A DNA stretch of 64,000 nt from Haladaptatus cibarius D43 (lineage in GTDB: Archaea > Halobacteriota > Halobacteria > Halobacteriales > Haladaptataceae): contig NZ_JDTH01000001.1 in the NCBI RefSeq assembly GCF_000710615.1, forward strand, positions 744,001 to 808,000. Direction: 5' to 3'. Under the pieces are notes generated by a model. It was not told the origin of the DNA and did no database searches. It saw only the letters and a list, made by a program, of their open reading frames with translations. The number at the start of each line of letters is the position of its first letter. Position 1 is the stretch's first letter. Shown here one piece after another: positions 3,675-63,328 of the stretch. The translations under genes and the position numbers were made by a program.

Positions 3675-4318
3675 CCCGAGCGAAAATCTGCGGCCTGACG
3701 GCGGAAGACGACCTCCACGCGGCCATCTCAGCAGGCGCGGACGCAATCGGTTTACTCGTGGACGTGCCAGTTGATTCGCCGCGGGAAATCGGCCCACTAC
3801 GGGCCGCCGAACTCGCACGGGAAGTCCCTCCTTTCGTGACGACCGTTCTCGTGACGATGCCCGAAACGCCGGAACAGACGGTCGAAATCGCGGAAATCGT
3901 CGAACCCGACGCCGTGCAGGTTCACGGGATGGGCGTCGGCGACCTCGCCTATCTATCGTCCAGCATCGACGGGAACGTCATTCGAGCCATCGACGCGACG
4001 ACCGAAAGTCCGGAACGCTACGACACGGTTGCCGACGCACTCCTCCTCGACGCCGGGAAAGCGGGCGGAACCGGCGAAACTCACGACTGGGAGCGCGCAC
4101 GGGAGCTCGTGAACTCTCTCGACTCGCCAGTCATCCTCGCGGGAGGACTAAGTCCGGACAACGTCGGCGATGCGGTCGAAGCGGTTGAACCCTTCGCCGT
4201 GGACGTTGCGAGCGGGGTCGAATCGGGCGGCGGACAGAAAGACCACTCCGCGGTCGAATCGTTCATCAGGAACGCGAAAGCACCACACGAGAAATCGGAG
4301 CCAGTTCTACAACGATGA
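3671..4318 (+). CDS. trpF: Phosphoribosylanthranilate isomerase
   Basis: Catalyses the Amadori rearrangement of N-(5-phosphoribosyl)anthranilate to CdRP. At 215 residues it has the usual size of a single TIM barrel. The catalytic cysteine is in the N-terminal KICGL motif (residue 7); the catalytic aspartate is in ALLLDAGKAGGTGETHDW; phosphate-binding loops VILAGGLSPDNV and VDVASGVESGGGQKD are intact. It starts in an ATGA overlap with trpD and ends in another with trpE, so the operon is tightly coupled. TrpF is not fused to TrpC, as it is in many bacteria. Confidence 0.96.
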   Translation: MTRAKICGLTAEDDLHAAISAGADAIGLLVDVPVDSPREIGPLRAAELAREVPPFVTTVLVTMPETPEQTVEIAEIVEPDAVQVHGMGVGDLAYLSSSIDGNVIRAIDATTESPERYDTVADALLLDAGKAGGTGETHDWERARELVNSLDSPVILAGGLSPDNVGDAVEAVEPFAVDVASGVESGGGQKDHSAVESFIRNAKAPHEKSEPVLQR

Positions 4319-5895
4319 AGCGAGACGAGTTCGTTGCCCACGCCGACAGCGATCAGCCAGTCGTGGTTCACGTCGAAACCGAACTGGACGTGGACATCGA
4401 CCCGTTGACCGCCTACTCCGCACTCGGCGGAAACGAGTACGATTTCCTCCTCGAAAGTGCCGACAAGGTCGCGTCCTCCGACCCGGACGGGGCGTTCGAA
4501 CCCGCTGGAACCGCAACCGCCGACCAACGCGCGCGCTACTCCTTCGTCGGCTATGACCCGAAAGCGGTCGTGTCTGTCGAATCGGACGAAACAGAGGTGC
4601 AGGTGCTGGACGACGACTGGAACCATGTGGTAGCCAGCGAACAGGACGCCGAGGGCGATATTCTCGACAAACTCCGGAACTCGCTTCCGGACGTGGAGCG
4701 ACGAGGATTCCCGAACGTGGACGGGTTTTCCGGCGGTCTGGTCGGGTTTCTGGCCTACGACGCGGTGTACGACCTCTGGCTGGAAGAACAGGGAATCGAG
4801 CATCCCGAGACGGAACTTCCCGATGCGCAGTTCGTCCTGAACACCAAGACACTCGTCTTCGACCACGTCGAAAACTCGCTTTCGTTGGTGTGTACGCCGG
4901 TCGTGTCGCCGGAAGACGAGCCGAGTGAGGTGTACGACGAACTGGTCGCGGAAGCGAATCGCATCGCCGAGACGCTCAAATCCGCGGACGAACCGAACTT
5001 CGGCGGATATCGACCGGACGAAGAGATTGCCGGGGCGCAAGACGAGTACGAAGACGCAGTGCGCCGGGCGAAAGAACACGTTTCCGCTGGCGACATCTAT
5101 CAGGGTGTCATCTCTCGAAAGCGAGAGATTCGGGGCGAAATCGACCCGCGGGGGTTGTATTCGGCCTTGCGCGAGGTGAACCCCTCGCCGTACATGTACC
5201 TCCTCGGCTACGAGGACAGAACCATCGTCGGCGCGAGTCCGGAGACGTTGGTGTCGGTTCGGGATGGAAAAATAGTCTCGAACCCAATCGCCGGAACCAG
5301 TTCGCGCGGCGGGAGTCCGATGGAAGACCGGCGATTGGCGGGCGAACTCCTCGCGGATGAAAAGGAGCGATCGGAACACGCGATGCTCGTAGATTTGGCC
5401 CGCAACGACGTTCGCCGGGTTTCACAGTCCGGTAGCATCCGCGTCGAGGAGTTCATGAACGTCATCAAGTACAGCCACGTTCAGCACATCGAAAGCACCG
5501 TCACGGGAACCATGGCAGAAGACTGTGACGCCTTCGACGCAGTGCGGGCGACCTTCCCCGCAGGAACCCTAACCGGCGCGCCGAAAATCCGCGCGATGGA
5601 GATAATCCACGACCTCGAAGAAACTTCACGAGGCGTGTACGGCGGCGGCGTCGGTTATATCTCGTGGACTGGTGACGCCAACTTCGCCATCGTCATCAGA
5701 ACCGCGACGATTGAGCACGGGCAAGCGGGCGAGCGGGATACAGTTACCGTACAGGCGGGCGCGGGAATCGTCGCGGACAGCGACCCGACGTCCGAGTTCG
5801 AGGAAACGGAACAGAAAATGGGTGGTGTGCTGTCGGCGCTGGAGACGATGGAACGTGAACCGGAATCTCAGCAGAAAATGGAGGTGTCCCGATGA
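4315..5895 (+). CDS. trpE: Anthranilate synthase component I
   Basis: Makes anthranilate from chorismate, using ammonia delivered by TrpG. The 526-residue protein has the chorismate-binding fold in its C-terminal half: DIYQGVISRKREI (about 259-271), IVGASPETLVSV, NPIAGTSSRG (about 323-332), DLARNDVRRVS and FPAGTLTGAPKIRAMEII (about 415-432), all conserved in active TrpE. The N-terminal half is expected to bear the tryptophan feedback site, but I cannot identify the allosteric residues with certainty. It overlaps trpF and trpG by four bases on each side. The alternative, a PabB or isochorismate synthase, is less likely because of the trp operon setting. Confidence 0.96.
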   Translation: MKRDEFVAHADSDQPVVVHVETELDVDIDPLTAYSALGGNEYDFLLESADKVASSDPDGAFEPAGTATADQRARYSFVGYDPKAVVSVESDETEVQVLDDDWNHVVASEQDAEGDILDKLRNSLPDVERRGFPNVDGFSGGLVGFLAYDAVYDLWLEEQGIEHPETELPDAQFVLNTKTLVFDHVENSLSLVCTPVVSPEDEPSEVYDELVAEANRIAETLKSADEPNFGGYRPDEEIAGAQDEYEDAVRRAKEHVSAGDIYQGVISRKREIRGEIDPRGLYSALREVNPSPYMYLLGYEDRTIVGASPETLVSVRDGKIVSNPIAGTSSRGGSPMEDRRLAGELLADEKERSEHAMLVDLARNDVRRVSQSGSIRVEEFMNVIKYSHVQHIESTVTGTMAEDCDAFDAVRATFPAGTLTGAPKIRAMEIIHDLEETSRGVYGGGVGYISWTGDANFAIVIRTATIEHGQAGERDTVTVQAGAGIVADSDPTSEFEETEQKMGGVLSALETMEREPESQQKMEVSR

Positions 5896-6527
5896 CTCGC
5901 GTGCTGTTCGTGGACAACTTCGATTCGTTCACCTACAACCTCGTGGAGTACGCCGAAGAAGCGCTCAGGGCGCAAGAATCCGGTGCGGATTCGGTTTCAG
6001 CAGTCGAAACCGAGGTCGTGAAAAACACCGCCTCGCTCGACGAGATTCGGGAGAAAAATCCGGATGTAATCATCATCAGTCCCGGCCCGGGGCATCCGGA
6101 AAACGAACGAGACGTGGGCGTTACGAACGACATTCTGCGCAAACTCTCACCCGAAATCCCGACGCTGGGCGTCTGTCTGGGTTTGGAAGCCGCGGTGTAC
6201 GTCTACGGCGGGACGATTGGACGCGCGCCGGAACCGATTCACGGCAAGGCGTTTCCGGTCGACCACGACGAAACCGGCGCGTTCGACGGCCTTGAACAGG
6301 GTTTTCAGGCGGGCCGGTACCATTCGCTCGTTTCGACTGCGGTTCCGGACTCCTTCGACGTGAGCGCGACGACAACCCACGACGGCGACGAACTGGTGAT
6401 GGGTGTTCGCCACCGCGAACACCCAATCGAATGTGTCCAGTTCCATCCGGAGAGTGTGCTCACTGCGTGTGGGCGGGAGATAATCGAGAACTTCCTTGCG
6501 CGTTACACCAACACGCCCGCCGCGTAG
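5892..6527 (+). CDS. trpG: Anthranilate synthase component II (glutamine amidotransferase)
   Basis: Class I glutamine amidotransferase that supplies ammonia to TrpE. In 211 residues it shows FVDNFDSFTYNLVEY at the N-terminus, the oxyanion loop ISPGPGHPENE, the nucleophile in GVCLGLEAAVYVYGG (Cys about 95) and the His-Glu pair in QFHPESVLT (about 183-185). The residues after CLG are Leu-Glu instead of the common His-Gln; these are not catalytic, so activity is expected. It is the last gene of the trp operon, and its 3' end overlaps a small convergent membrane-protein gene. Confidence 0.95.
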   Translation: MTRVLFVDNFDSFTYNLVEYAEEALRAQESGADSVSAVETEVVKNTASLDEIREKNPDVIIISPGPGHPENERDVGVTNDILRKLSPEIPTLGVCLGLEAAVYVYGGTIGRAPEPIHGKAFPVDHDETGAFDGLEQGFQAGRYHSLVSTAVPDSFDVSATTTHDGDELVMGVRHREHPIECVQFHPESVLTACGREIIENFLARYTNTPAA

Positions 6528-6664
6528 AGCGCGGCGACGACGAGGAGGGCGATAACGCCGAGTCGCCAGATGAGCGCGACGGCGAAGCGAACGGCGACGA
6601 TGAGGAGAATGATTCCGATAACCACAGCGACGATGCCGACTGGTTCGATTGCGAGGGGTAGCAT
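6503..6664 (-). CDS. Small hydrophobic membrane protein (53 aa)
   Basis: On the minus strand an ATG at 6664 opens a 53-codon frame ending at TAA 6503-6505. The product starts MLPLAIEPVGIVAVVIG and is almost wholly hydrophobic, with two predicted membrane helices separated by VRFAVALIWRLG. No function is recognised. Its 3' end overlaps trpG by about 25 bp in convergent orientation. The consistent hydrophobic pattern and clean ATG support it as a real gene, but 53 residues is short and composition alone could mislead. Confidence 0.6.
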   Translation of the reverse strand: MLPLAIEPVGIVAVVIGIILLIVAVRFAVALIWRLGVIALLVVAALYAAGVLV

Positions 6665-6913
6665 ATCCGAAATGACTGCGTACTGAATGGTAAACGTATC
6701 GGTGGTGTCTGGTTCGATTGCGGTGGAAAATCAGATAACGGCGGCCGAGTAAGCACGCCTTACCGTGAGAAATTCAATCATATCGGTCACTTTCGCTCCG
6801 GTCTGAACACTCTTATAGTCCTTGGCGTCTTACTCTGTAACAGGCGAAAAACGGACTCCAGAGGCGTCACTGTACAAACAAACTTGGGATAAAGAAAGTA
6901 AACTTAATTGGGG

Positions 6914-7018
6914 ATGGGTCAAATGGATTCTTCGTTACGAATGAAACGGTTCTACGCACACGACGAGTGGCGAATCGCCACGCAGAGCAGCGAAACAGCG
7001 GTGGTGACGCTCGTATGA
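6914..7018 (+). CDS. Possible 34-residue upstream ORF overlapping the nrdJ start
   Basis: An ATG at 6914 (in-frame ATGs also at 6923 and 6941) opens a frame beginning MGQMDSSLRMKRFYAHDEW and ending at a TGA that overlaps the nrdJ ATG as ATGA. Coupling of this kind is used by real gene pairs in this window. I recognise no family. It may be a short coupled peptide, a regulatory upstream frame, or chance. Confidence 0.3.
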   Translation: MGQMDSSLRMKRFYAHDEWRIATQSSETAVVTLV

Positions 7019-10000
7019 GCGGCGCGCACGAGACGGACGCCGACGAAGTCACCCTCCCGGTCAAGCGAACCAAGGGCGACACCCTCGAAGACCGAATGAC
7101 GGGCAACGCCTACCAGAACATCCTCCCGGCGCGCTATCTCCGCAAGGACGCCGACGGCAATCTCGTCGAGTCACAGGAAGACCTGTTCCCGCGCGTTGCG
7201 AAAAACATCGCGCTCGCGGAAGCGGTCTACGAGGCCGAAAAGCAGGGCACCGAAATCACGGTTACGCCCGAGCAGCTGAAACCCGACCACCCTCGCCGCG
7301 ACGAACTCGCCGCCGAAGTGTTCGGCAAGGGAACGACCACCGAGGACGACGCGGAAACGACGCTTTCGGTCTACAACGTCAACAAGTTCGCCTACGACAC
7401 GGTCGTTCCGGAGATCCCCGAGGACATCGCGGAACACGTCGAATCCGTCCGCGACGAGTTCGACGACCTGATGGAAGGCCTGTCGTTCATCCCGAACTCG
7501 CCGACGCTGATGAACGCTGGCGACGAACTCCAGCAGTTGTCCGCCTGTTTCGTTGACTCGCCGGGCGACGACATCACGGACATCCACCAGACCGCGAAGG
7601 AGGCCGCGGAGGTCTTCCAGTCCGGCGGTGGCATGGGCTATGCATTCTGGAAACTCCGACCGTACGGTGACGCAGTCGGTTCGACGGGCGGCATCGCCTC
7701 CGGCCCGATTACGTTCATGCGCACCTACGACCAGATGTGCGAAACCATTGCGCAGGGCGGTGCCCGGCGCGGCGCACAGATGGGCGTCATGCGCGTTTCA
7801 CACCCGGACGTCATCCAGTTCATCCACGCGAAAAACAAGGACGTGAGCCTCGCCAACTCGCTCCGATTGAACGACCCCGACGACTACACGCACACGTCGT
7901 TCAAGGACGCGCTCAAAGAGGCCCGCGAACTCATCGATGACGACGGACGCGTCCCAAAACACCTCCGAAACGCCGCCGAGGGACATCTCTCTAACTTCAA
8001 CATCTCCGTCGGCGTCACGGACGACTTCATGGACGCGCTCTACAACGACGAGGAGTTCGTCTTCACCAACCCGCGAACGGAAGAACCGCACGTCGCCACC
8101 GAACACACCGAGGAGATGTACGACATGTTCGGCCTCGGCGACTACGTCACGCCGGGCGAAGTGCTGTCGATTCCCGCCGACGTTCTCTGGAATCGCATCG
8201 TGGAGGGTGCGTGGGAGAACGGCGAACCCGGCGTCATCTACCTCGAACGGGTGAACAAGGAACACTCCTTCGATGTGGAAGAACACCCAGACCACCGGAT
8301 TCTGGCGACGAATCCGTGCGGCGAACAGCCGCTCGAAGAGTACGAGGCCTGCAACCTCGGCCACATCAACCTCTCGACGCTGGCCGACACGGACGCCCCG
8401 GACTGGCGCGTCTGGTACGAACAGAACGGCGACAGTTACGGGTCGCTGTCGGAAGCCGTGAACGCCTTCCTCCGCGACGCCATCGATTGGGACGAGTTCG
8501 ATTACCGCATCGACTACGGGACTCGATTCCTCGAAAACGTCGTCACGATGTCCGACTTCCCGGTCGAGAAAATCGAGCAGAAAGTTCGGGACATGCGGAA
8601 AATCGGACTGGGCATCATGGGACTCGCCCAGTTGTACATCCAACTCGGCGTTCGCTACGGAAGCGACGAGGGCAACGAAATCGCCCAGCAGTTGATGACC
8701 CACATCAATCACGAGTCGAAATGGGCCTCCCACGAACTCGCCGAGGAACGCGACTCGTTCAACGACTGGTCGGATTCGAAGTACGCGAACCCGACGGAGT
8801 ACCCCGAATGGTTCGAAAAGCAGACCGGACTCAATCCGGAAAAGTGGAAGGACGGCTTCTCGGTTCGGAACCACAACACGACCACCATCGCGCCAACGGG
8901 GACCACCTCGATGGTCGGCAACACCACGGGCGGCTGTGAGCCGATTTACAACGTCGCCTACTACAAGAACGTCTCCGACGACGTGCAGGGCGACGAGATG
9001 CTCGTGGAGTTCGACGACTACTTCCTCCGCACGCTGGAGGCCAACGATATCGAAGTGGCTGCAGTTAAGCAGGAAGCCCAAGAGCAGATGGCGAACAATC
9101 AGTTCGCTGGCGTCGAAGGACTCGAAACCGTCCCGGACGCCATCGGCGAACTGTTCGTCGTGACGGGCGACCTCACCGGCAAACAGCACGCCGCGGTGCA
9201 GTGTGCCTGCCAGCAGGGCGTCGACTCGGCAATCTCGAAGACCTGTAACTTCCCGAACTCCGCCAGCAAGGAGGACATGGACGAGGTGTACCGCTACATC
9301 TACGACCACGGCGGAAAAGGCGTCACGGTGTACCGCGACGGCACGCGCTCGAAACAGGTTCTCACCACGCGCGCCGACAACGCCGAGTTCGCCGACGAGG
9401 ACGAGGCTGCGGAAACCATCGCCGAACAAATCGAGGCGGTCTTCGGCGGTATCGAAGGCTTCATCGAGAACGAAGAAGTGCAGGCCGCACTCGGCGACGA
9501 ACTGTCCAGTCTGACCGAAGGCGGTGTGACCGGCGGTGCCTACGCCAAAGAGCGTCCGCGTCCGGACGTGCTCCACGGCGTCACTCAGCGCATCGACACC
9601 GGCTACGGCAAGATGTACGTGAACATCAACGAGGACGAATCCGGCGAACCGTTCGAACTGTTCGCCACCATCGGCAACTCCGGTGGGTTCACCAACTCCT
9701 TCACGGAAGCGTTGGCGAAGGTCATCAGCTACGCCCTCCGAAGCGGCGTTGACCCGAACGAAATCGCGTCCGACTTGCAGGGCATTCGCAGTCCGAAAGT
9801 CGCGTGGGACAAGGGCGAACAGATCAACTCCATTCCTGACGCAATCGGCGTGGCGATGCGACGCTACCTCGACGGCGAAATCGAGCGAACGGGCATCCCA
9901 CAGCAGAAGACGCTCGAAGAGACGGCTGACGAGGGCGAAACCGACGGCGGCGCGGTCGAGACCGAAAAAGACGCCTCCCAGTCGCTCATCGACGCGGGTG

Positions 10001-47328: not shown

Positions 47329-47718
47329 ATGGTCGAGGACAGAACCACCGACGGCGTGCGCATCGCACAACTTCTCTCTTCGGAACTCGACGGGCGCGAA
47401 GACCCGCCGCTCGATTCGCTTGCCGTGATAAATGCGAACCGCGACGTAGAACCCAGCGAAGACGGGACGCTGGCCTACGAAGTCGAGCGGAGTGAGCAGG
47501 GGGGCAATGAGCGAGTGGCGAGCGTGTTCGTCCACCCCGACCGAATTCGGATGGAACTCACGGAGGGAATCGAATCGGCGGAAAAAACCGCTCGCAAAGC
47601 TGATTTGCTTGTTCGCCCGAAAGCGGTCGAACCGCCCCGCGTTCTCATTTTCGTGGAGCAGGGTGCACACGTCAAACGCGCCGTTGACGCGCTGATTGCC
47701 GGACTCGACAGCAGTTAG
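47329..47718 (+). CDS. Conserved haloarchaeal protein of unknown function (129 aa)
   Basis: 129 residues from MVEDRTTDGVRIAQLLSSEL. The protein is acidic, alpha/beta, with LAVINANRDVEPSEDGTLAY, VASVFVHPDRIRMELTEGI and PPRVLIFVEQGAHVKRAVDA. The last segment looks like a strand-helix pair that closes a small domain. No active site is recognisable. The start lies 25 bp after DUF2240, so the two are probably co-transcribed. Confidence 0.75.
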   Translation: MVEDRTTDGVRIAQLLSSELDGREDPPLDSLAVINANRDVEPSEDGTLAYEVERSEQGGNERVASVFVHPDRIRMELTEGIESAEKTARKADLLVRPKAVEPPRVLIFVEQGAHVKRAVDALIAGLDSS

Positions 47719-47722
47719 ACGG

Positions 47723-48379
47723 TTACAGTGAGGAAATCAAATCGGGAAGCCCTAACACGAGTTCGTCGCGGTCGATGTAGGCGTCGGCCACCGGTTCCGG
47801 TTCCGGGCCGTCGGGATACAGGACTTGCACGGTCATCATTCCAGCATTGTTCGCACCCAAAACGTCCATTTCGGGCTTGTCGCCGACGTAGACGGTTTCT
47901 TCCGGTGGCGATCCGAGTTCGGAGCAGAGTGCGTCGAACGCCCGACTGTCGGGTTTGCCCGCGTCGAGTTCGCCCGTGACGATGGTCGTATCGAAATACG
48001 GTTCCCAACCGAGTTGTGCGATTTTTCCGCGCTGGGCGACGACCGGGCCGTTCGTGAGCAGGCCGACGCGGTAGTTTTGCCGGAGCGTATCGAGCATGTT
48101 CGGGATACCAGTGAGCGGCGTAAGCGCGTCGAGAATCGCGTTCCGGTAGGCTTCCGTCAGCGTCTCGGACGAAATTTCGCTCTCCTCCGGAAGCAAGTCC
48201 GCGAAAATCGGCTCCCGCGTTTCGGTTGCGAGATGCCGACTGTGGGCAGCGAGATAGTCTTCGCGCGAGAGCGACGGGGCGCTCACCGCTTCTGTCGCGT
48301 CCGAGAGAAGCGTCGCTCGCGGTCGGTCAGTCACCGCAAGCGTATCGTCGAGGTCAAAACCCACAGCGGTCACGCGCAT
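47723..48379 (-). CDS. HAD-superfamily hydrolase
   Basis: 218 residues. Motif I is VGFDLDDTLAVTD (about 6-18) with both aspartates, motif II is the Thr in VGLLTNGPV, motif III Lys in ELDAGKPDSRAFDAL, motif IV in VYVGDKPEMDVLGANNAGM. A helical cap sits between motifs I and II (SREDYLAAHSRHLATETREP). It is a small-molecule phosphatase of unknown substrate, of the phosphoglycolate/haloacid type. Convergent with the 129-residue gene, four bases apart. Compare the interrupted HAD gene at 56944. Confidence 0.9.
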   Translation of the reverse strand: MRVTAVGFDLDDTLAVTDRPRATLLSDATEAVSAPSLSREDYLAAHSRHLATETREPIFADLLPEESEISSETLTEAYRNAILDALTPLTGIPNMLDTLRQNYRVGLLTNGPVVAQRGKIAQLGWEPYFDTTIVTGELDAGKPDSRAFDALCSELGSPPEETVYVGDKPEMDVLGANNAGMMTVQVLYPDGPEPEPVADAYIDRDELVLGLPDLISSL

Positions 48380-52968: not shown

Positions 52969-54612
52969 ATGAGCGCTGACCGCGCCGCCTTACAGCAGGC
53001 TCTCGACCGGGGAGAGCAGGAAGGCGGTAGCGTGGAGTTCAAGGAACGACTGACGAAGGAAATCCACCTTGCCGAAGGGCGAATGGAGAGTCTGGCCGCG
53101 CAGTTACGCCACCGTGTCCTCTCGGGGGACGGCGAGGCGACCTATGTGGTCGGCGTCACCGACGACGGCGGACTGGCGGGAATCAACCCCGAACTCTTTT
53201 CGGAATCGATGGACGTACTTTCGTTTCTCGCCGAGGAAGCAGGCGCGCACATCGAAGACGTACAGACGTGGGGTATCGACGCCACGGAGACGAGCACGCG
53301 CGCTTCGACCCGAAACGGAAACGGCGGCATCGTCGGCGTCGCCACCATCCGCGAGGGTGCCGTCCTCGAAACCGACAGCGAACACATCGTCGTCGGAACC
53401 GCGGGACACGTAGACCACGGAAAGAGCACGCTCGTCGGCAGTCTCGTCACCGGCCAGTCTGACGACGGCGAAGGCGGAACCCGGGGCTATCTGGACGTGC
53501 AACCGCACGAGGTTCAGCGCGGCCTCAGCGCTGACCTCTCCTACGCAGTGTACGGGTTCGACGACGACGGCCCGGTTCACATGGACAACCCCCATCGAAA
53601 GACCGACCGGGCGCGAATCGTGGAGGAGAGCGACCGACTCGTCTCCTTTGTGGACACCGTCGGTCACGAACCGTGGCTTCGGACGACGATTCGCGGCCTC
53701 GTCGGGCAGAAACTCGACTACGGCCTGCTGACCGTCGCCGCGGACGACGGCCCGACGAGGACGACGCGCGAACACCTCGGCATCCTGCTGGCCACCGAAC
53801 TGCCGACTATCGTCGCCATTACGAAAACCGATATGGTGGACGAAGCGCGCGCGATGGAGGTCGAACGCGAAGTCGAGCAACTGCTCCGCGAAGTCGGCAA
53901 GACACCGCTCCGGGTCGAACGCCACGGCGTCGAAGTTGCCATCGAAGAGGTGGACACGAACGTCGTCCCCATCCTCATGACCAGCGCGGTCACGATGGAA
54001 GGGCTGGACGCTTTGGACACGATGTTCGAGCAGTTGCCAAAAACGACCGCTGACAGCGGCGAGTTCCGGATGTACATCGACCGCAGTTACAGCGTGACTG
54101 GCGTCGGCCCAGTCGCCAGCGGGACGATAAATTCGGGCGAGGTGGAGGCCGGCGACGACCTCCTCCTCGGGCCGATGCCGGACGGCGAGTTCCGCGAGGT
54201 GGAGGTTCGCTCCATCGAGATGCATTATCACCGCGTCGATGAGGCGAAGGCGGGCCGAATCGTCGGCATCGCGCTGAAGGGTGTTCGAGAGGCAGACATC
54301 GAACGCGGGATGGTTCTGGTTCCACCGGGAGCAGAACCGAACGCGGTCTGGGAGTTCGACGCCGAAGTGATGGTGTTGAACCATCCGACCAACATCGGCA
54401 CCGGCTACGAACCCGTCGTTCACCTCGAAACCATCAGCGAAACCGCCGTCTTCGAACCCGAGGGAGGCCGTCTCCTGCCCGGCGACAAGGGGACGACGAG
54501 TGTCAGGTTCAAGTTCCGACCCTACCTCGTCGAAGAAGGTCAGCGATTCGTCTTCCGCGAGGGCCAGAGCAAGGGCGTCGGCACCGTGACCGCGGTACGG
54601 CGAGTCGAGTAG
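52969..54612 (+). CDS. GTPBP1-like translational-type GTPase
   Basis: 547 residues. The N-terminal 130 are a regulatory region (EGGSVEFKERLTKEIHLAEG). The G domain follows: G1 VGTAGHVDHGKSTLVGSL (about 143-160), G3 FVDTVGHEPWL, G4 AITKTDMVDEAR. Beta-barrel domains II and III resemble EF-Tu (YIDRSYSVTGVGPVASGTIN; GYEPVVHLETISETAVFEPE; PGDKGTTSVRFKFRPYLVEE). In eukaryotes GTPBP1 acts in mRNA decay and ribosome rescue; in haloarchaea the role is open. The last 22 codons (54547-54612) are duplicated at 56416-56481, see the repeat entry. Confidence 0.9.
   Translation: MSADRAALQQALDRGEQEGGSVEFKERLTKEIHLAEGRMESLAAQLRHRVLSGDGEATYVVGVTDDGGLAGINPELFSESMDVLSFLAEEAGAHIEDVQTWGIDATETSTRASTRNGNGGIVGVATIREGAVLETDSEHIVVGTAGHVDHGKSTLVGSLVTGQSDDGEGGTRGYLDVQPHEVQRGLSADLSYAVYGFDDDGPVHMDNPHRKTDRARIVEESDRLVSFVDTVGHEPWLRTTIRGLVGQKLDYGLLTVAADDGPTRTTREHLGILLATELPTIVAITKTDMVDEARAMEVEREVEQLLREVGKTPLRVERHGVEVAIEEVDTNVVPILMTSAVTMEGLDALDTMFEQLPKTTADSGEFRMYIDRSYSVTGVGPVASGTINSGEVEAGDDLLLGPMPDGEFREVEVRSIEMHYHRVDEAKAGRIVGIALKGVREADIERGMVLVPPGAEPNAVWEFDAEVMVLNHPTNIGTGYEPVVHLETISETAVFEPEGGRLLPGDKGTTSVRFKFRPYLVEEGQRFVFREGQSKGVGTVTAVRRVE
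54547..54612 (+). repeat. Left copy of a 66-bp direct repeat (GTPase 3' end)
   Basis: TTCGTCTTCCGCGAGGGCCA begins 41 bases identical to 56416-56456. The last 25 bases differ at eight positions, all near the end of the frame, yet both copies end AGTCGAGTAG at equal distance. This copy is the present in-frame end of the GTPase gene (ending GTVTAVRRVE). Confidence 0.92.
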
Positions 54613-54615
54613 CAC

Positions 54616-55017
54616 TCATACAGCCGAAACGCGAAGATAATAGAATCTGTCGTTATACTCAACAACTTTCATTCTGTCTTCATCGTTGAATCTGAATACA
54701 TCTTGGTTCACGTTGCAGTCACATTGGAGTGCTTTAGTAAATACCTCCGTTTGCTTCTCAGAAAGATTCCCAAATGAGATCCGTCTGCTTTCATTATATT
54801 TTGAAGCTGTATCTGCACTAATCTTAGAGACGGACAGGAGGTCTGCCCCTTTCTGTGTGGTTTCCTGACTGCTAGTTGATGTTGTTTGCTGTGCCGTACT
54901 ATCTGGGACTGTTGTCTCCTTCGGTGTGCTAGAGTTGCCATTATCAGACTGCATACTCGCACACCCAGAAATCGCTACCATTAGTACCAGTAGTATACTA
55001 ATGACTTTCACTCTCAT
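54616..55017 (-). CDS. Lipoprotein with a conserved C-terminal domain shared with 55751-56326
   Basis: 133 residues from MRVKVISILLVLMVAISGCA, a Sec signal with lipobox ISGC; upstream in-frame codons would place a cytoplasmic tail and are unlikely. A Ser/Thr-rich linker (NGNSSTPKETTVPDSTAQQT) precedes a 65-residue domain: YNESRRISFGNLSEKQTEVF, TKALQCDCNVNQDVF and DRMKVVEYNDRFYYL. The same Y..L....Q..F..AL...F.F.DR..V...D..YYL pattern occurs in the Tat-exported protein at 55751. The stop is four bases from the GTPase stop, so the two genes meet end to end. Function unknown. Confidence 0.66.
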   Translation of the reverse strand: MRVKVISILLVLMVAISGCASMQSDNGNSSTPKETTVPDSTAQQTTSTSSQETTQKGADLLSVSKISADTASKYNESRRISFGNLSEKQTEVFTKALQCDCNVNQDVFRFNDEDRMKVVEYNDRFYYLRVSAV

Positions 55018-55109
55018 TGTTCCTTCCTTGATGAATGGGATGTTAAATACTTTCTGAATATGCGGATTTAAAAAACATTTACAACCGGCCTGCAAAAATA
55101 TATATTGTA

Positions 55110-55745
55110 ATGACTGTAAAGATAAAAATATGGTGTGAGTATTCGTACACAGAAGCCACTAGTGATTGGCAAGATAGTATGGTGGCAGTTCGAAATCACA
55201 TTGAACAAGCATTAGATGACGCAAGTATGTCACATGATGTGAGTATAATCACGAGTGAGATACCGGATATGCCTAAACCCATCAACTTGTACGATAGCGA
55301 AAACTCTGATGCGTGGGATAAGTGGCTCAATGACAACAACGCATATGTCGAAGATTCAAACATTCTTCTTATGTTTGATAAAGGTGGAGTAACATTTGGA
55401 AGTGGTCGTAACCCAAATACAACGACTGACGGTTGCATGACTCTTCTCGGTGCCGAAGACCTGCTTGGAATCCAAGGTACTCAAACCGAAGGGAAGTCGG
55501 AACACTATCACGATATTTACAACGGACTGCACGAACTAAGCCACGCCCTTGATGCACCGACTGGGTCTTCTTGCATCGGTCAGTATTGGGAGGACAATAA
55601 CAACGAATACCATCGAACACCTGCGCAGACGAAATACGGTTCAACGACAGTGTGTGGCCTATGGCACAACGGTTCATATCAGGGCAATACATGGTGGGAT
55701 CTGACGTACTACGGCTGCGCACAGGGATACCTTACGGATCAGTGA
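55110..55745 (+). CDS. Putative zinc metallopeptidase (HELSH motif)
   Basis: 211 residues from MTVKIKIWCEYSYTEATSDW. No signal peptide is apparent. The HExxH zinc motif occurs in DIYNGLHELSHALDAPTGSS (His-Glu-Leu-Ser-His around 147-151), followed by a Cys and an Asn/His-rich region (CIGQYWEDNNNEYHRTP). SNILLMFDKGGVTFGSG precedes it. Codon use and AT content differ from most neighbours, as expected of acquired DNA. I know no exact family; protease activity is inferred from the motif alone. It is followed after five bases by the Tat-exported protein and is likely co-transcribed with it. Confidence 0.62.
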   Translation: MTVKIKIWCEYSYTEATSDWQDSMVAVRNHIEQALDDASMSHDVSIITSEIPDMPKPINLYDSENSDAWDKWLNDNNAYVEDSNILLMFDKGGVTFGSGRNPNTTTDGCMTLLGAEDLLGIQGTQTEGKSEHYHDIYNGLHELSHALDAPTGSSCIGQYWEDNNNEYHRTPAQTKYGSTTVCGLWHNGSYQGNTWWDLTYYGCAQGYLTDQ

Positions 55746-55750
55746 TCATA

Positions 55751-56326
55751 ATGTATAAAAAACATATAAATGCAGAACTCAACCGAAGAAAAGTATTGCA
55801 ATCACTAGGCCTGTCGGTATCGCTGTTCGGATTCGGAGCTACGCGCGTGAGCGCAGCCTCCTCGTCTGAACCGCGAGAAGAAAATACTGTAAATACCTCT
55901 GAACTCTCCGAGAAGTCAAAGAACATCCTCGAAACTTCGTTGTTGCAGGGTTCATACACCCAGCGACGGTCACTTCCAAAACCACTCCGCACAAATCAAT
56001 ATGTACAATCTGGTGGGGAGATATACGCACTCAACTTCGAGTACCGTGATATTCACAAAAACCGCATTCGCCCGATGGAGATCCAGACCGAGGGTGACAT
56101 CGAATCCGATGCTGTCTCGTCGTATAGCCGACTACCAGCAGTTGCGCAACAGATCTTCGATTATGCGCTTGAAAATGGATCCTTTGAGTTAACTGGTGGC
56201 AATCTATGGGAATTTGACTTTGGTGACCGGTATGTAGAGAGAGATGGTACTTACTATCTACTACAATTTACACATATGGACATCCCACAGTATTCACTCT
56301 CCCCCAGCAAAGTGGATAAGGCATAA
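55751..56326 (+). CDS. Tat-exported protein of unknown function
   Basis: 191 residues from MYKKHINAELNRRKVLQSLG. The signal has twin arginines and a hydrophobic stretch (NRRKVLQSLGLSVSLFGFG) ending near an AASSS cleavage region. The mature part has two similar-looking segments, the second (SYSRLPAVAQQIFDYALENG... FEFDFGDRYVERDGTYYLLQ-like) matching the C-terminal domain of the lipoprotein on the opposite strand. The earlier segment (KSKNILETSLLQGSYTQRRS ... YVQSGGEIYALNF) looks like a diverged copy of it. The protein would act outside the cell with the lipoprotein. A GTPase 3' end copy follows 90 bp later. Confidence 0.62.
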   Translation: MYKKHINAELNRRKVLQSLGLSVSLFGFGATRVSAASSSEPREENTVNTSELSEKSKNILETSLLQGSYTQRRSLPKPLRTNQYVQSGGEIYALNFEYRDIHKNRIRPMEIQTEGDIESDAVSSYSRLPAVAQQIFDYALENGSFELTGGNLWEFDFGDRYVERDGTYYLLQFTHMDIPQYSLSPSKVDKA

Positions 56327-56415
56327 GTCAATGCCGATTCACCAGGTCTGTTTATTGCTGTGTGTTTAGAATAGTAGTACAATTACTCACAATCGACACC
56401 GATCGCTTCCCTCGG

Positions 56416-56481
56416 TTCGTCTTCCGCGAGGGCCAGAGCAAGGGCGTCGGCACCGTCACCGACGCAACGTCAGTCGAGTAG
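56416..56481 (+). repeat. Right copy of the 66-bp direct repeat (orphan GTPase 3' end)
   Basis: It encodes FVFREGQSKGVGTVT then DATSVE and a stop, in the frame of the GTPase, but has no gene body in front. The stop is directly followed by the TATA box of the next gene, suggesting that this was the original end of the GTPase gene before insertion. Confidence 0.9.
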
Positions 56482-56489
56482 GTTTATTT
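56482..56489 (+). promoter_or_regulatory. TATA box of the 56513 gene
   Basis: GTTTATTT is 24 to 31 bp before the ATG at 56513, at the leaderless distance. Confidence 0.5.
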
Positions 56490-56512
56490 TCCCCTCGCCC
56501 GCAGTTTCGCCC

Positions 56513-56857
56513 ATGTCGAAACTGCGATTCGATGCGACCACCGGGACGAAGGCGTTCACCGCGCTTCTTCTGCTGGTCGCACTCGTCTCGGTCGTTAGGT
56601 TGGTTTTCGAACAAGGAGTTGGTGGATTGCTGGAAGGCCTTGCTATCCTGTACCTCGTCGGCGTCCTCTTTATCGGCGTCTTCCGCGATATTACGCAAAC
56701 TGCTCGGTGGAGAGTGGCGTTTTTCAGTGGTATCGTCGTCTGGTCGCTGACGAACTACTTCCTTGCTGGTGGCGACCAGTTTTCCCTGATGCTGGGCGTA
56801 GCAGGGTCGGTGATGCTCGTTCTCCAAGGGTATCAGTACATGCAGGCAGGAGAGTGA
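56513..56857 (+). CDS. Four-helix membrane protein of unknown function
   Basis: 114 residues from MSKLRFDATTGTKAFTALLL. Hydrophobic helices lie at about 14-33, 38-58, 68-84 and 90-106 (VLFIGVFRDITQTARWRVAF, SGIVVWSLTNYFLAGGD, LMLGVAGSVMLVLQGYQYMQ). It has no known domain. Its position directly after the orphan GTPase end suggests that it was once immediately downstream of the GTPase gene. Confidence 0.75.
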   Translation: MSKLRFDATTGTKAFTALLLLVALVSVVRLVFEQGVGGLLEGLAILYLVGVLFIGVFRDITQTARWRVAFFSGIVVWSLTNYFLAGGDQFSLMLGVAGSVMLVLQGYQYMQAGE

Positions 56858-62567: not shown

Positions 62568-62630
62568 CTTGTCCCGTTGAGAAATGCGCACAGACAACTC
62601 GCTTCGCTCGCCGTTGTGAGTTCGCAAAAA

Positions 62631-62701
62631 TGCGCTGGCTGGGATTTGAACCCAGGTTGTGACCATGGCAAGGTCACGTGATACCACTACACTACCAGCG
62701 C
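62631..62701 (-). tRNA. tRNA-Gly (GCC), copy 1
   Basis: Minus-strand acceptor arms GCGCTGG and CCAGCGC pair, with A as discriminator. Stem GTGACC/GGTCAC closes the loop TTGCCAT, giving anticodon GCC. The T arm is CTGGGTTCAAATCCCAG. The gene is 71 nt, without intron or encoded CCA, and identical to the copy at 63047. Confidence 0.96.
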
Positions 62702-63046
62702 GTGGTGTTTTTCGACAATACAATCTTGCCACGGCTGGGTATAAATGTATTACGCAAGCGGGGTGGCGAGAGCAAGCCGAGAATAAATTTAATTGTTCTC
62801 GCGCGCGGGTGACTGTAGGATGATTATCACACGAAGTCGAGCGACGGTCAGCCGTCGCTCAACGGTTTATGTTCGGGAAAAGTGCGCTGGCAGGGATTTG
62901 AACTCGTCAAGACATTCCTGCTCGGCTCACTTCGTTCGCCTGCGCGGGCTGTGACTTGTCTGCTCAAATCCACAGGACGATTTCCACTGACGCGAGTAGC
63001 GAACGACACTTAGCGGCGTCGCTCATGAGTTTGCGTCAGTGAGAAA
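62702..63046. other. Interval between the two tRNA-Gly genes
   Basis: No protein gene. It contains the hairpin GAGCGACGG-TCAG-CCGTCGCTC at 62839-62860, the tRNA-fragment element at 62881-62987, and an inverted repeat CACTGACGC (about 62985)/GCGTCAGTG (about 63033) next to the second tRNA. Confidence 0.55.
62881..62987. repeat. Hairpin element containing a copy of the tRNA-Gly 3' end
   Basis: GCGCTGGCAGGGATTTGAAC (62884-62903) differs by one base from the tRNA-Gly 3' end. It is followed by a loop with ATTCCTGCTC and CTTCG units and by GCTCAAATCC, nearly complementary to GGATTTGAAC. Its design is that of the element beside tRNA-Val at 2275-2379. It is 60 bp on the 3' side of tRNA-Gly copy 2. 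Confidence 0.7.
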
Positions 63047-63117
63047 TGCGCTGGCTGGGATTTGAACCCAGGTTGTGACCATGGCAAGGTCACGTGATAC
63101 CACTACACTACCAGCGC
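63047..63117 (-). tRNA. tRNA-Gly (GCC), copy 2
   Basis: Identical to the copy at 62631 over 71 nt, including acceptor arms GCGCTGG/CCAGCGC and anticodon GCC in loop TTGCCAT. The two genes share GAGAAATGCGC at the 3' side, suggesting a tandem duplication. Confidence 0.96.
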
Positions 63118-63328
63118 AGGTTGCTTGCACTTCCTCGTATTCCCGACTACAGTATAAGACTTGCGAGTCAGAATGCCTTCGTGTGGGAATCACTCTCTCA
63201 CTTCTCTTGATTCGGAGGGTTTCAGGCGTGTGAATACGTCACGCTCCCGAATCGGAAGCGTCACCCTTTTAACCATCACTGAGAAAATTTCGCTACAGTC
63301 TAGTGATGAGGCGTCGAAGCGTCACGGT

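What the first reader, a model, noticed from the sequence alone, without database searches (positions are those of the whole stretch)
54547..56481. Element inserted in the 3' end of a GTPBP1-like GTPase gene, with gene restoration
Two 66-bp direct repeats, identical over the first 41 bases, carry the end of the GTPase frame and its stop codon. The left copy completes the present gene; the right copy is orphaned and sits directly before the TATA box and start of the native neighbour. Between them is a 1.8-kb AT-rich insert with a lipoprotein, an HExxH protein and a Tat-exported protein. Differences between the copies are confined to the last codons and never break the frame. This is how tRNA-targeted islands restore their target; I know of no described case at this gene family. 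No integrase is visible, so the element may be mobilised in trans or be a decayed remnant. Alternatives: gene duplication followed by deletion, or recombination between homologous genes.
Basis: partly seen in the sequence, partly recalled or inferred. Interest (0 to 1): 0.9.

Follow-up and report, generated by a model that had tools for sequence, protein, structure and literature searches.

The report
Mobile element inserted at GTPase gene end
In this salt-loving archaeon a small foreign DNA element has slotted into the very end of a conserved GTPase gene and carries a replacement gene end so the gene stays intact; unrelated elements have done the same thing at the same spot in three other haloarchaeal genomes, none of them with a visible integrase.

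Summary
Two copies of the last ~66 bp of a GTPBP1-like GTPase gene (54544-54612 and 56413-56481; 41 nt identical) flank a 1.8-kb insert with 44% GC. Related Haladaptatus genomes (H. litoreus, H. pallidirubidus, a third species) have the empty site: one gene end joined directly to the 56513 gene. The right copy continues the native sequence and the left copy carries a different, element-borne tail that rebuilds the frame, as in attL/attR of an integrated element. The same structure, with unrelated cargo, occurs in three more of 552 haloarchaeal genomes: two Halorhabdus (1.7 and 3.1 kb apart) and one Halovivax (7.1 kb). One Halorhabdus case has a clean empty site in a sister genome with ~94% identical flanks. 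In all four the repeat starts within 7 nt of the same codon and ends at the stop codon. In 80 other species nothing comparable lies within 10 kb. No integrase was seen in any of the four. Most likely this is an integrase-less remnant or satellite (CIME-like) inserted by a site-specific recombinase acting elsewhere or since lost. The kind is known; the target gene and its repeated use appear undescribed in the papers searched.

The parts
52969..54612 (+). GTPBP1-like GTPase gene (547 aa), the integration target, with its 3' end rebuilt by the left repeat
   Evidence: Pfam GTP_EFTU, D2, D3; the homologous plasmid gene is annotated 'GTPBP1 family GTP-binding protein'; 98% aa identical to Haladaptatus litoreus
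54544..54612 (+). left repeat = attL-like; native upstream part, identical 41-nt core 54547-54587, element-borne tail ...TVTAVRRVE*
   Evidence: the tail differs from the native TVTDVTSVE* of H. litoreus and is followed by insert DNA
54613..56412 (.). 1.8-kb AT-rich insert (44% GC), absent from empty-site relatives
54616..55017 (-). cargo: 133-aa lipoprotein; homologues are chromosomal in other Haladaptataceae
   Evidence: lipobox VAISGC in the sequence; homologues up to 46% id
55110..55745 (+). cargo: 211-aa HExxH (HELSH) putative metalloprotease, no Pfam family
   Evidence: remote Halorussus homologues keep HExxH and two Cys
55751..56326 (+). cargo: 191-aa protein with twin-arginine (NRRKVLQSLG) signal
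   Evidence: sequence; 27% id homologue on a Haloferax larsenii plasmid
56413..56481 (+). right repeat = attR-like; orphaned native gene end ...TVTDATSVE* running into native intergenic DNA
   Evidence: tail and following GTTTATTTTCCCC match H. litoreus, H. pallidirubidus and G008 empty sites
56513..56857 (+). native neighbour (114-aa membrane protein), directly downstream of the GTPase in relatives
   Evidence: tblastn 72-87% id, about 32 bp after the GTPase stop in L003-L005

Best explanation
54613-56412 is the body of an integrated mobile element. It entered by recombination between a chromosomal site (attB) in the last ~20 codons of the GTPBP1-like GTPase gene and a matching site on the incoming DNA (attP) that carries a working copy of the same gene end. 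The crossover left attL (54544-54612: native front, element-borne tail that closes the gene) and attR (56413-56481: orphaned native tail). Shown: the repeats, empty sites in relatives, which tail is native, and three further independent elements with unrelated cargo at the same position. Inferred: catalysis by a site-specific (probably tyrosine) recombinase, which is not encoded in the element. It either acted in trans from another replicon or was lost later, leaving a CIME-like remnant that keeps both att sites.
For: Empty sites in same-genus genomes 89-98% identical in the GTPase. The right tail and flank match the native sequence; the left tail does not. The same anatomy occurs in two Halorhabdus and one Halovivax genome, with copies 1,711, 3,059 and 7,083 bp apart. 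For the 1.7-kb Halorhabdus case a sister genome has both flanks (95% over 1.56 kb and 93.6% over 4.0 kb) with a 64-bp overlap and no insert. In all four, repeats start within 7 nt of the same codon and end at the stop codon, so only coding gene end is duplicated. Cargo is unrelated between elements. Background is far lower. The FREG(Q/R/S)SKGVGTVT end is nearly invariant while the last residues vary freely, as expected of a good restorable target.
Against: No integrase gene was seen in any of the four elements, and none of 552 genomes scanned shows an integrase-bearing element at this site, so the catalyst is inferred. No excised circle was seen. No common arm-type motif was found inside the element ends. 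No plasmid, phage or IMG/VR viral contig carries the attP-like sequence, apart from one full gene copy on a plasmid.
Confidence: 0.82

Rival explanations
1. Homologous recombination: foreign DNA that happened to include a GTPase gene end from a related archaeon integrated by a single RecA/RadA-type crossover, without a site-specific recombinase.
For: No integrase is present. In the Halorhabdus and Halovivax elements the tails match the host genus (TVTDVTGVE, TDVSPVE), so attP is host-like.
Against: The shared segment is only ~63-69 nt in all four and has the same two limits each time; captured gene ends should have random and usually longer limits and run on into native intergenic DNA. Four independent hits at one gene end in 552 genomes are unexpected.
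Confidence: 0.1
2. Tandem duplication of the GTPase gene followed by deletion of most of one copy and filling of the gap with foreign genes.
For: It would also leave a gene-end repeat.
Against: The left tail in the window is not the native one. It needs the same two deletion limits four times. Sister genomes show no intermediates, only clean empty sites.
Confidence: 0.04
3. A transposon, casposon or IS-type insertion with a target-site duplication at the gene end.
For: Casposons are known to target the 3' end of the EF-2 GTPase gene in Thaumarchaeota (PMC6563490).
Against: No transposase or Cas1 in the window element; no terminal inverted repeats at its ends. The repeat is ~66 bp, ends at the stop codon, and its copies differ in a native/foreign pattern rather than as an exact duplication.
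Confidence: 0.04

Closest known systems
CIME (cis-mobilizable element) and decayed ICE/IME at 3' ends of housekeeping genes (review PMC5704250)
   Same: attL and attR retained, integration and transfer genes absent, target gene not disrupted because one repeat carries its end
   Different: archaeal host, GTPBP1-like target, no parent ICE/IME known, very small (1.7-1.9 kb for two of the four)
Cryptic integrated elements in 3' ends of protein-coding genes of Thaumarchaeota (PMC6563490)
   Same: archaeal, 3'-distal protein-coding target, frame rebuilt by element-borne sequence, verified by empty sites, unrelated elements reusing orthologous targets
   Different: ~66-bp repeats (thaumarchaeal ones are generally short; crenarchaeal 29-69 bp), no integrase, different target gene (none of the listed targets is GTPBP1-like)
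Casposons inserting at the EF-2 gene
   Same: 3' end of a translation-type GTPase gene in archaea
   Different: no Cas1, no terminal inverted repeats, long gene-end repeat instead of a short duplication
tRNA-targeted haloarchaeal proviruses and plasmids with tyrosine integrases (review PMC8371274)
   Same: attP carries the gene end and restores the target
   Different: protein gene instead of tRNA, and no integrase

Membership tests
Element integrated by site-specific recombination (attL/attR) | direct repeats flanking foreign DNA, single copy at the empty site | tested here: met
   Halorhabdus case
Element integrated by site-specific recombination (attL/attR) | target gene restored by element-borne sequence | tested here: met
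   left tail foreign, right tail native, frame of 547 aa kept
Element integrated by site-specific recombination (attL/attR) | the same site reused by independent elements with the same limits | tested here: met
   four elements in three families
Autonomous integrative element (ICE, provirus, integrative plasmid) | encodes an integrase | tested here: not met
   judged from ORF lists and family scans of the main ORFs
CIME | lost integration and transfer genes but keeps attL and attR | tested here: met
   that they were 'lost' rather than never present is not shown
CIME | can be mobilised by another element using the same att site | not testable with these tools
   no autonomous partner found in 552 genomes, viral contigs, plasmids or phages
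Casposon | Cas1 integrase and terminal inverted repeats | tested here: not met
   no Cas1-like ORF; no inverted repeat at the insert ends
Insertion sequence or MITE | terminal inverted repeats, short exact target duplication | tested here: not met
   repeat of 69 nt at 87% with native/foreign tails

The most novel reading that the evidence does not exclude
The 3' end of the GTPBP1-like gene is a haloarchaeal insertion site for a class of small cassettes that carry only cargo plus a gene-end att site, and are moved entirely in trans by an unidentified recombinase, much as integron cassettes or phage satellites are, rather than being decayed larger elements.
Probability: 0.25. Interest if true: 0.75.

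Novelty: new member of a known kind. Interest (0 to 1): 0.48.

Why it matters
It adds a well-conserved, nearly universal haloarchaeal protein gene to the list of integration targets. It gives a simple sequence signature (a second FREGxSKGVGTVT gene end) with which to find islands that tRNA-based searches miss. It also poses a testable question: which recombinase acts at a site where all four known occupants lack one. The 41-nt core could become an integration site for haloarchaeal genetics if the enzyme is found.

Tried and rejected
(1) Chance or ordinary gene-end repeats: rejected by 80 other species and 4,882 ORF ends. (2) Extra hits in G342, G382, G047, G076, G549 are 3-mismatch chance matches away from the gene. 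G471 is a redundant contig in a metagenome assembly, 99.2% identical. G413 has a second copy on another contig; its coordinates agree with a Natronorubrum bangense plasmid record. (3) A 16-nt match 3 kb downstream in Haladaptatus sp. DYF46 lies in a region coding for a conserved gene: coincidence. (4) Lipoprotein homologues elsewhere are not flanked by gene-end repeats. (5) The viral-contig hit to the HExxH protein is a DNA polymerase: spurious. (6) AlphaFold model of the HExxH protein failed (pLDDT 38.5), so no fold search was run. (7) Shared arm motif in element ends: one shared 8-mer, null mean 0.1 and maximum 3: nothing convincing. (9) Rfam: nothing at 54400-56700.

Full report
Observation. 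The window is haloarchaeal; the nearest named genomes are Haladaptatus litoreus (GTPase 98% aa identical) and H. pallidirubidus (95%). The GTPase gene 52969-54612 (547 aa) has EF-Tu-type domains 1-3; a homologue on a Natronorubrum bangense plasmid is annotated as GTPBP1 family. Its last 69 nt (54544-54612) recur at 56413-56481 with 87% identity and an identical 41-nt stretch. The intervening DNA is 44% GC against 60-65% around it and codes for a lipoprotein (complement of 54616-55017), an HELSH protein (55110-55745) and a twin-arginine protein (55751-56326). In the whole window only two other direct-repeat families exist at this seed length.

Empty sites. In L003 (H. litoreus), L004 (H. pallidirubidus) and L005 (G008, unnamed) the GTPase stop codon is followed after about 32 bp by the orthologue of the 56513 gene, and no second gene end exists. 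H. halobius (L007) has the same order with a more distant neighbour gene. The right copy in the window (ACCGTCACCGACGCAACGTCAGTCGAGTAG then GTTTATTTTCCCC) continues the native sequence of these genomes. The left tail (ACCGTGACCGCGGTACGGCGAGTCGAGTAG then CACTC) does not. So the right copy is the original gene end and the left tail came with the insert.

Recurrence. A degenerate 35-nt pattern of the gene end (FREGxSKGVGTV) was searched in haloarchaeal genomes, one per species, with up to 3 mismatches: 392 across the order, and then the fuller families of G379 (125), G153 (146) and G342 (170). Handles run from G000 to G551, i.e. 552 different genomes. Nearly all have it exactly once. Genuine nearby doubles exist only in G000 (this window), G153 and G133 (one genus) and G379. 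G379 is Halovivax, because G146's contig length of 460,303 equals that of H. asiaticus. Copies are 1,711, 3,059 and 7,083 bp apart. The inserts differ. G153: an M48 peptidase and an M54 (archaemetzincin)-like protein. G133: a protein with a twin-arginine-like start, a transposase-like protein of the UPF0236 family (weak matches to Mutator and IS66 models) and an unknown protein. G379: a TrkA protein, an amino-acid permease with Usp domains, an AsnC-TrkA_C regulator and a Usp protein. GC of the inserts is 44-56%. For G153 the sister genome G096 matches 1.56 kb left (95%) and 4.0 kb right (93.6%) with a 64-bp overlap and no insert, an independent empty-site proof. For G379 the left flank matches G263 and its right flank resumes later with gaps; for G133 the right flank is not shared with the other Halorhabdus loci beyond the gene end.

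Limits of the repeats. In all four elements the repeat begins within 7 nt of the same codon (...TTCGTC|TTCCG...) and ends at the stop codon. The left limit is not explained by coding selection, because the left part of the right copy is orphaned. The right limit is expected if only the coding end must be rebuilt. This common geometry is the main argument for site-specific recombination over random capture.

Background. In 80 named species, 10 kb downstream of the GTPase gene contains at best 27 of 41 matches to the gene end; the window has 41 of 41. In a scan of 4,882 ORF ends in 1.7 Mb, repeats at 36 of 45 or better were 17, four of them the elements described here; most others look like duplicated tRNA genes or tandem paralogues.

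Mechanism. Shown: insertion, empty site, native and foreign tails, repeated use of the site. Inferred: a site-specific recombinase, probably of the tyrosine type given the long gene-end repeat (PMC6563490 quotes 29-69 bp for crenarchaeal elements). No integrase is seen in any of the four, and no autonomous element at this site was found in viral contigs, plasmids, phages or the 552 genomes. The element is therefore either mobilised in trans or a CIME-type remnant (definition: PMC5704250); I cannot separate the two. The pattern search would miss shorter or decayed sites, so four in 552 is a lower bound.

Cargo. The lipoprotein family is chromosomal in several Haladaptataceae. The HExxH protein has remote Halorussus relatives (23-24% over the alignment) that keep HExxH and two cysteines, and a putative metalloprotease role is inferred from that motif only. 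The Tat protein has one distant plasmid homologue. Their functions are not established here.

Novelty. Protein-gene 3'-end integration with frame restoration is known in bacteria and archaea. A search for GTPBP1 with integrase and archaea found no paper. I file this as a new member of a known kind at a newly seen, repeatedly used target.

Noticed in passing
L067:4799-5443 (Halorhabdus G153 element): The element-borne M54 archaemetzincin-like protein has lost the HExxH residues (NEVIKLMGQMLG where relatives have KEVVHEIGHTFG) but keeps the cysteines, so it looks like a catalytically dead metalloprotease beside an M48 peptidase with HELGH intact.
   Followed up: partly
G413:C2:281828 (position agrees with the hit in NZ_CP031306, Natronorubrum bangense plasmid): A second GTPBP1-like gene end, identical in the 35-nt pattern, lies on another contig; the plasmid record is annotated with a GTPBP1 family gene there, so this is probably a full gene copy on a plasmid.
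   Followed up: no
Halorussus loci L013, L015, L018, L021, L022: The 114-aa membrane protein downstream of the GTPase is present as two tandem paralogues in several Halorussus genomes.
   Followed up: no
L110, L111 (Haladaptatus G002 and Halorussus G026): Homologues of the cargo lipoprotein sit in a conserved chromosomal group with an ABCE1-like ATPase and, about 2 kb away, an intact archaemetzincin gene.
   Followed up: no
L109 (Halorussus G015), about 4100-7130 with the locus turned so that the lipoprotein gene is on the minus strand: A lipoprotein homologue borders an AT-rich segment (40-50% GC) next to what looks like a tRNA-derived ORF, possibly another integrated element.
   Followed up: no
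L168:14831-17233 (Halobellus clavatus): The last 45 nt of an 800-aa ORF recur identically 3.1 kb downstream, probably tandem surface proteins sharing a C-terminal anchor.
   Followed up: no
window 62628-62710 and 63044-63126: Two near-identical tRNA-Gly(GCC) genes 416 bp apart.
   Followed up: no
window 47715-47816: ARAGORN calls a 102-nt tRNA-Val with anticodon AAC, unusual for archaea and perhaps a false positive.
   Followed up: no
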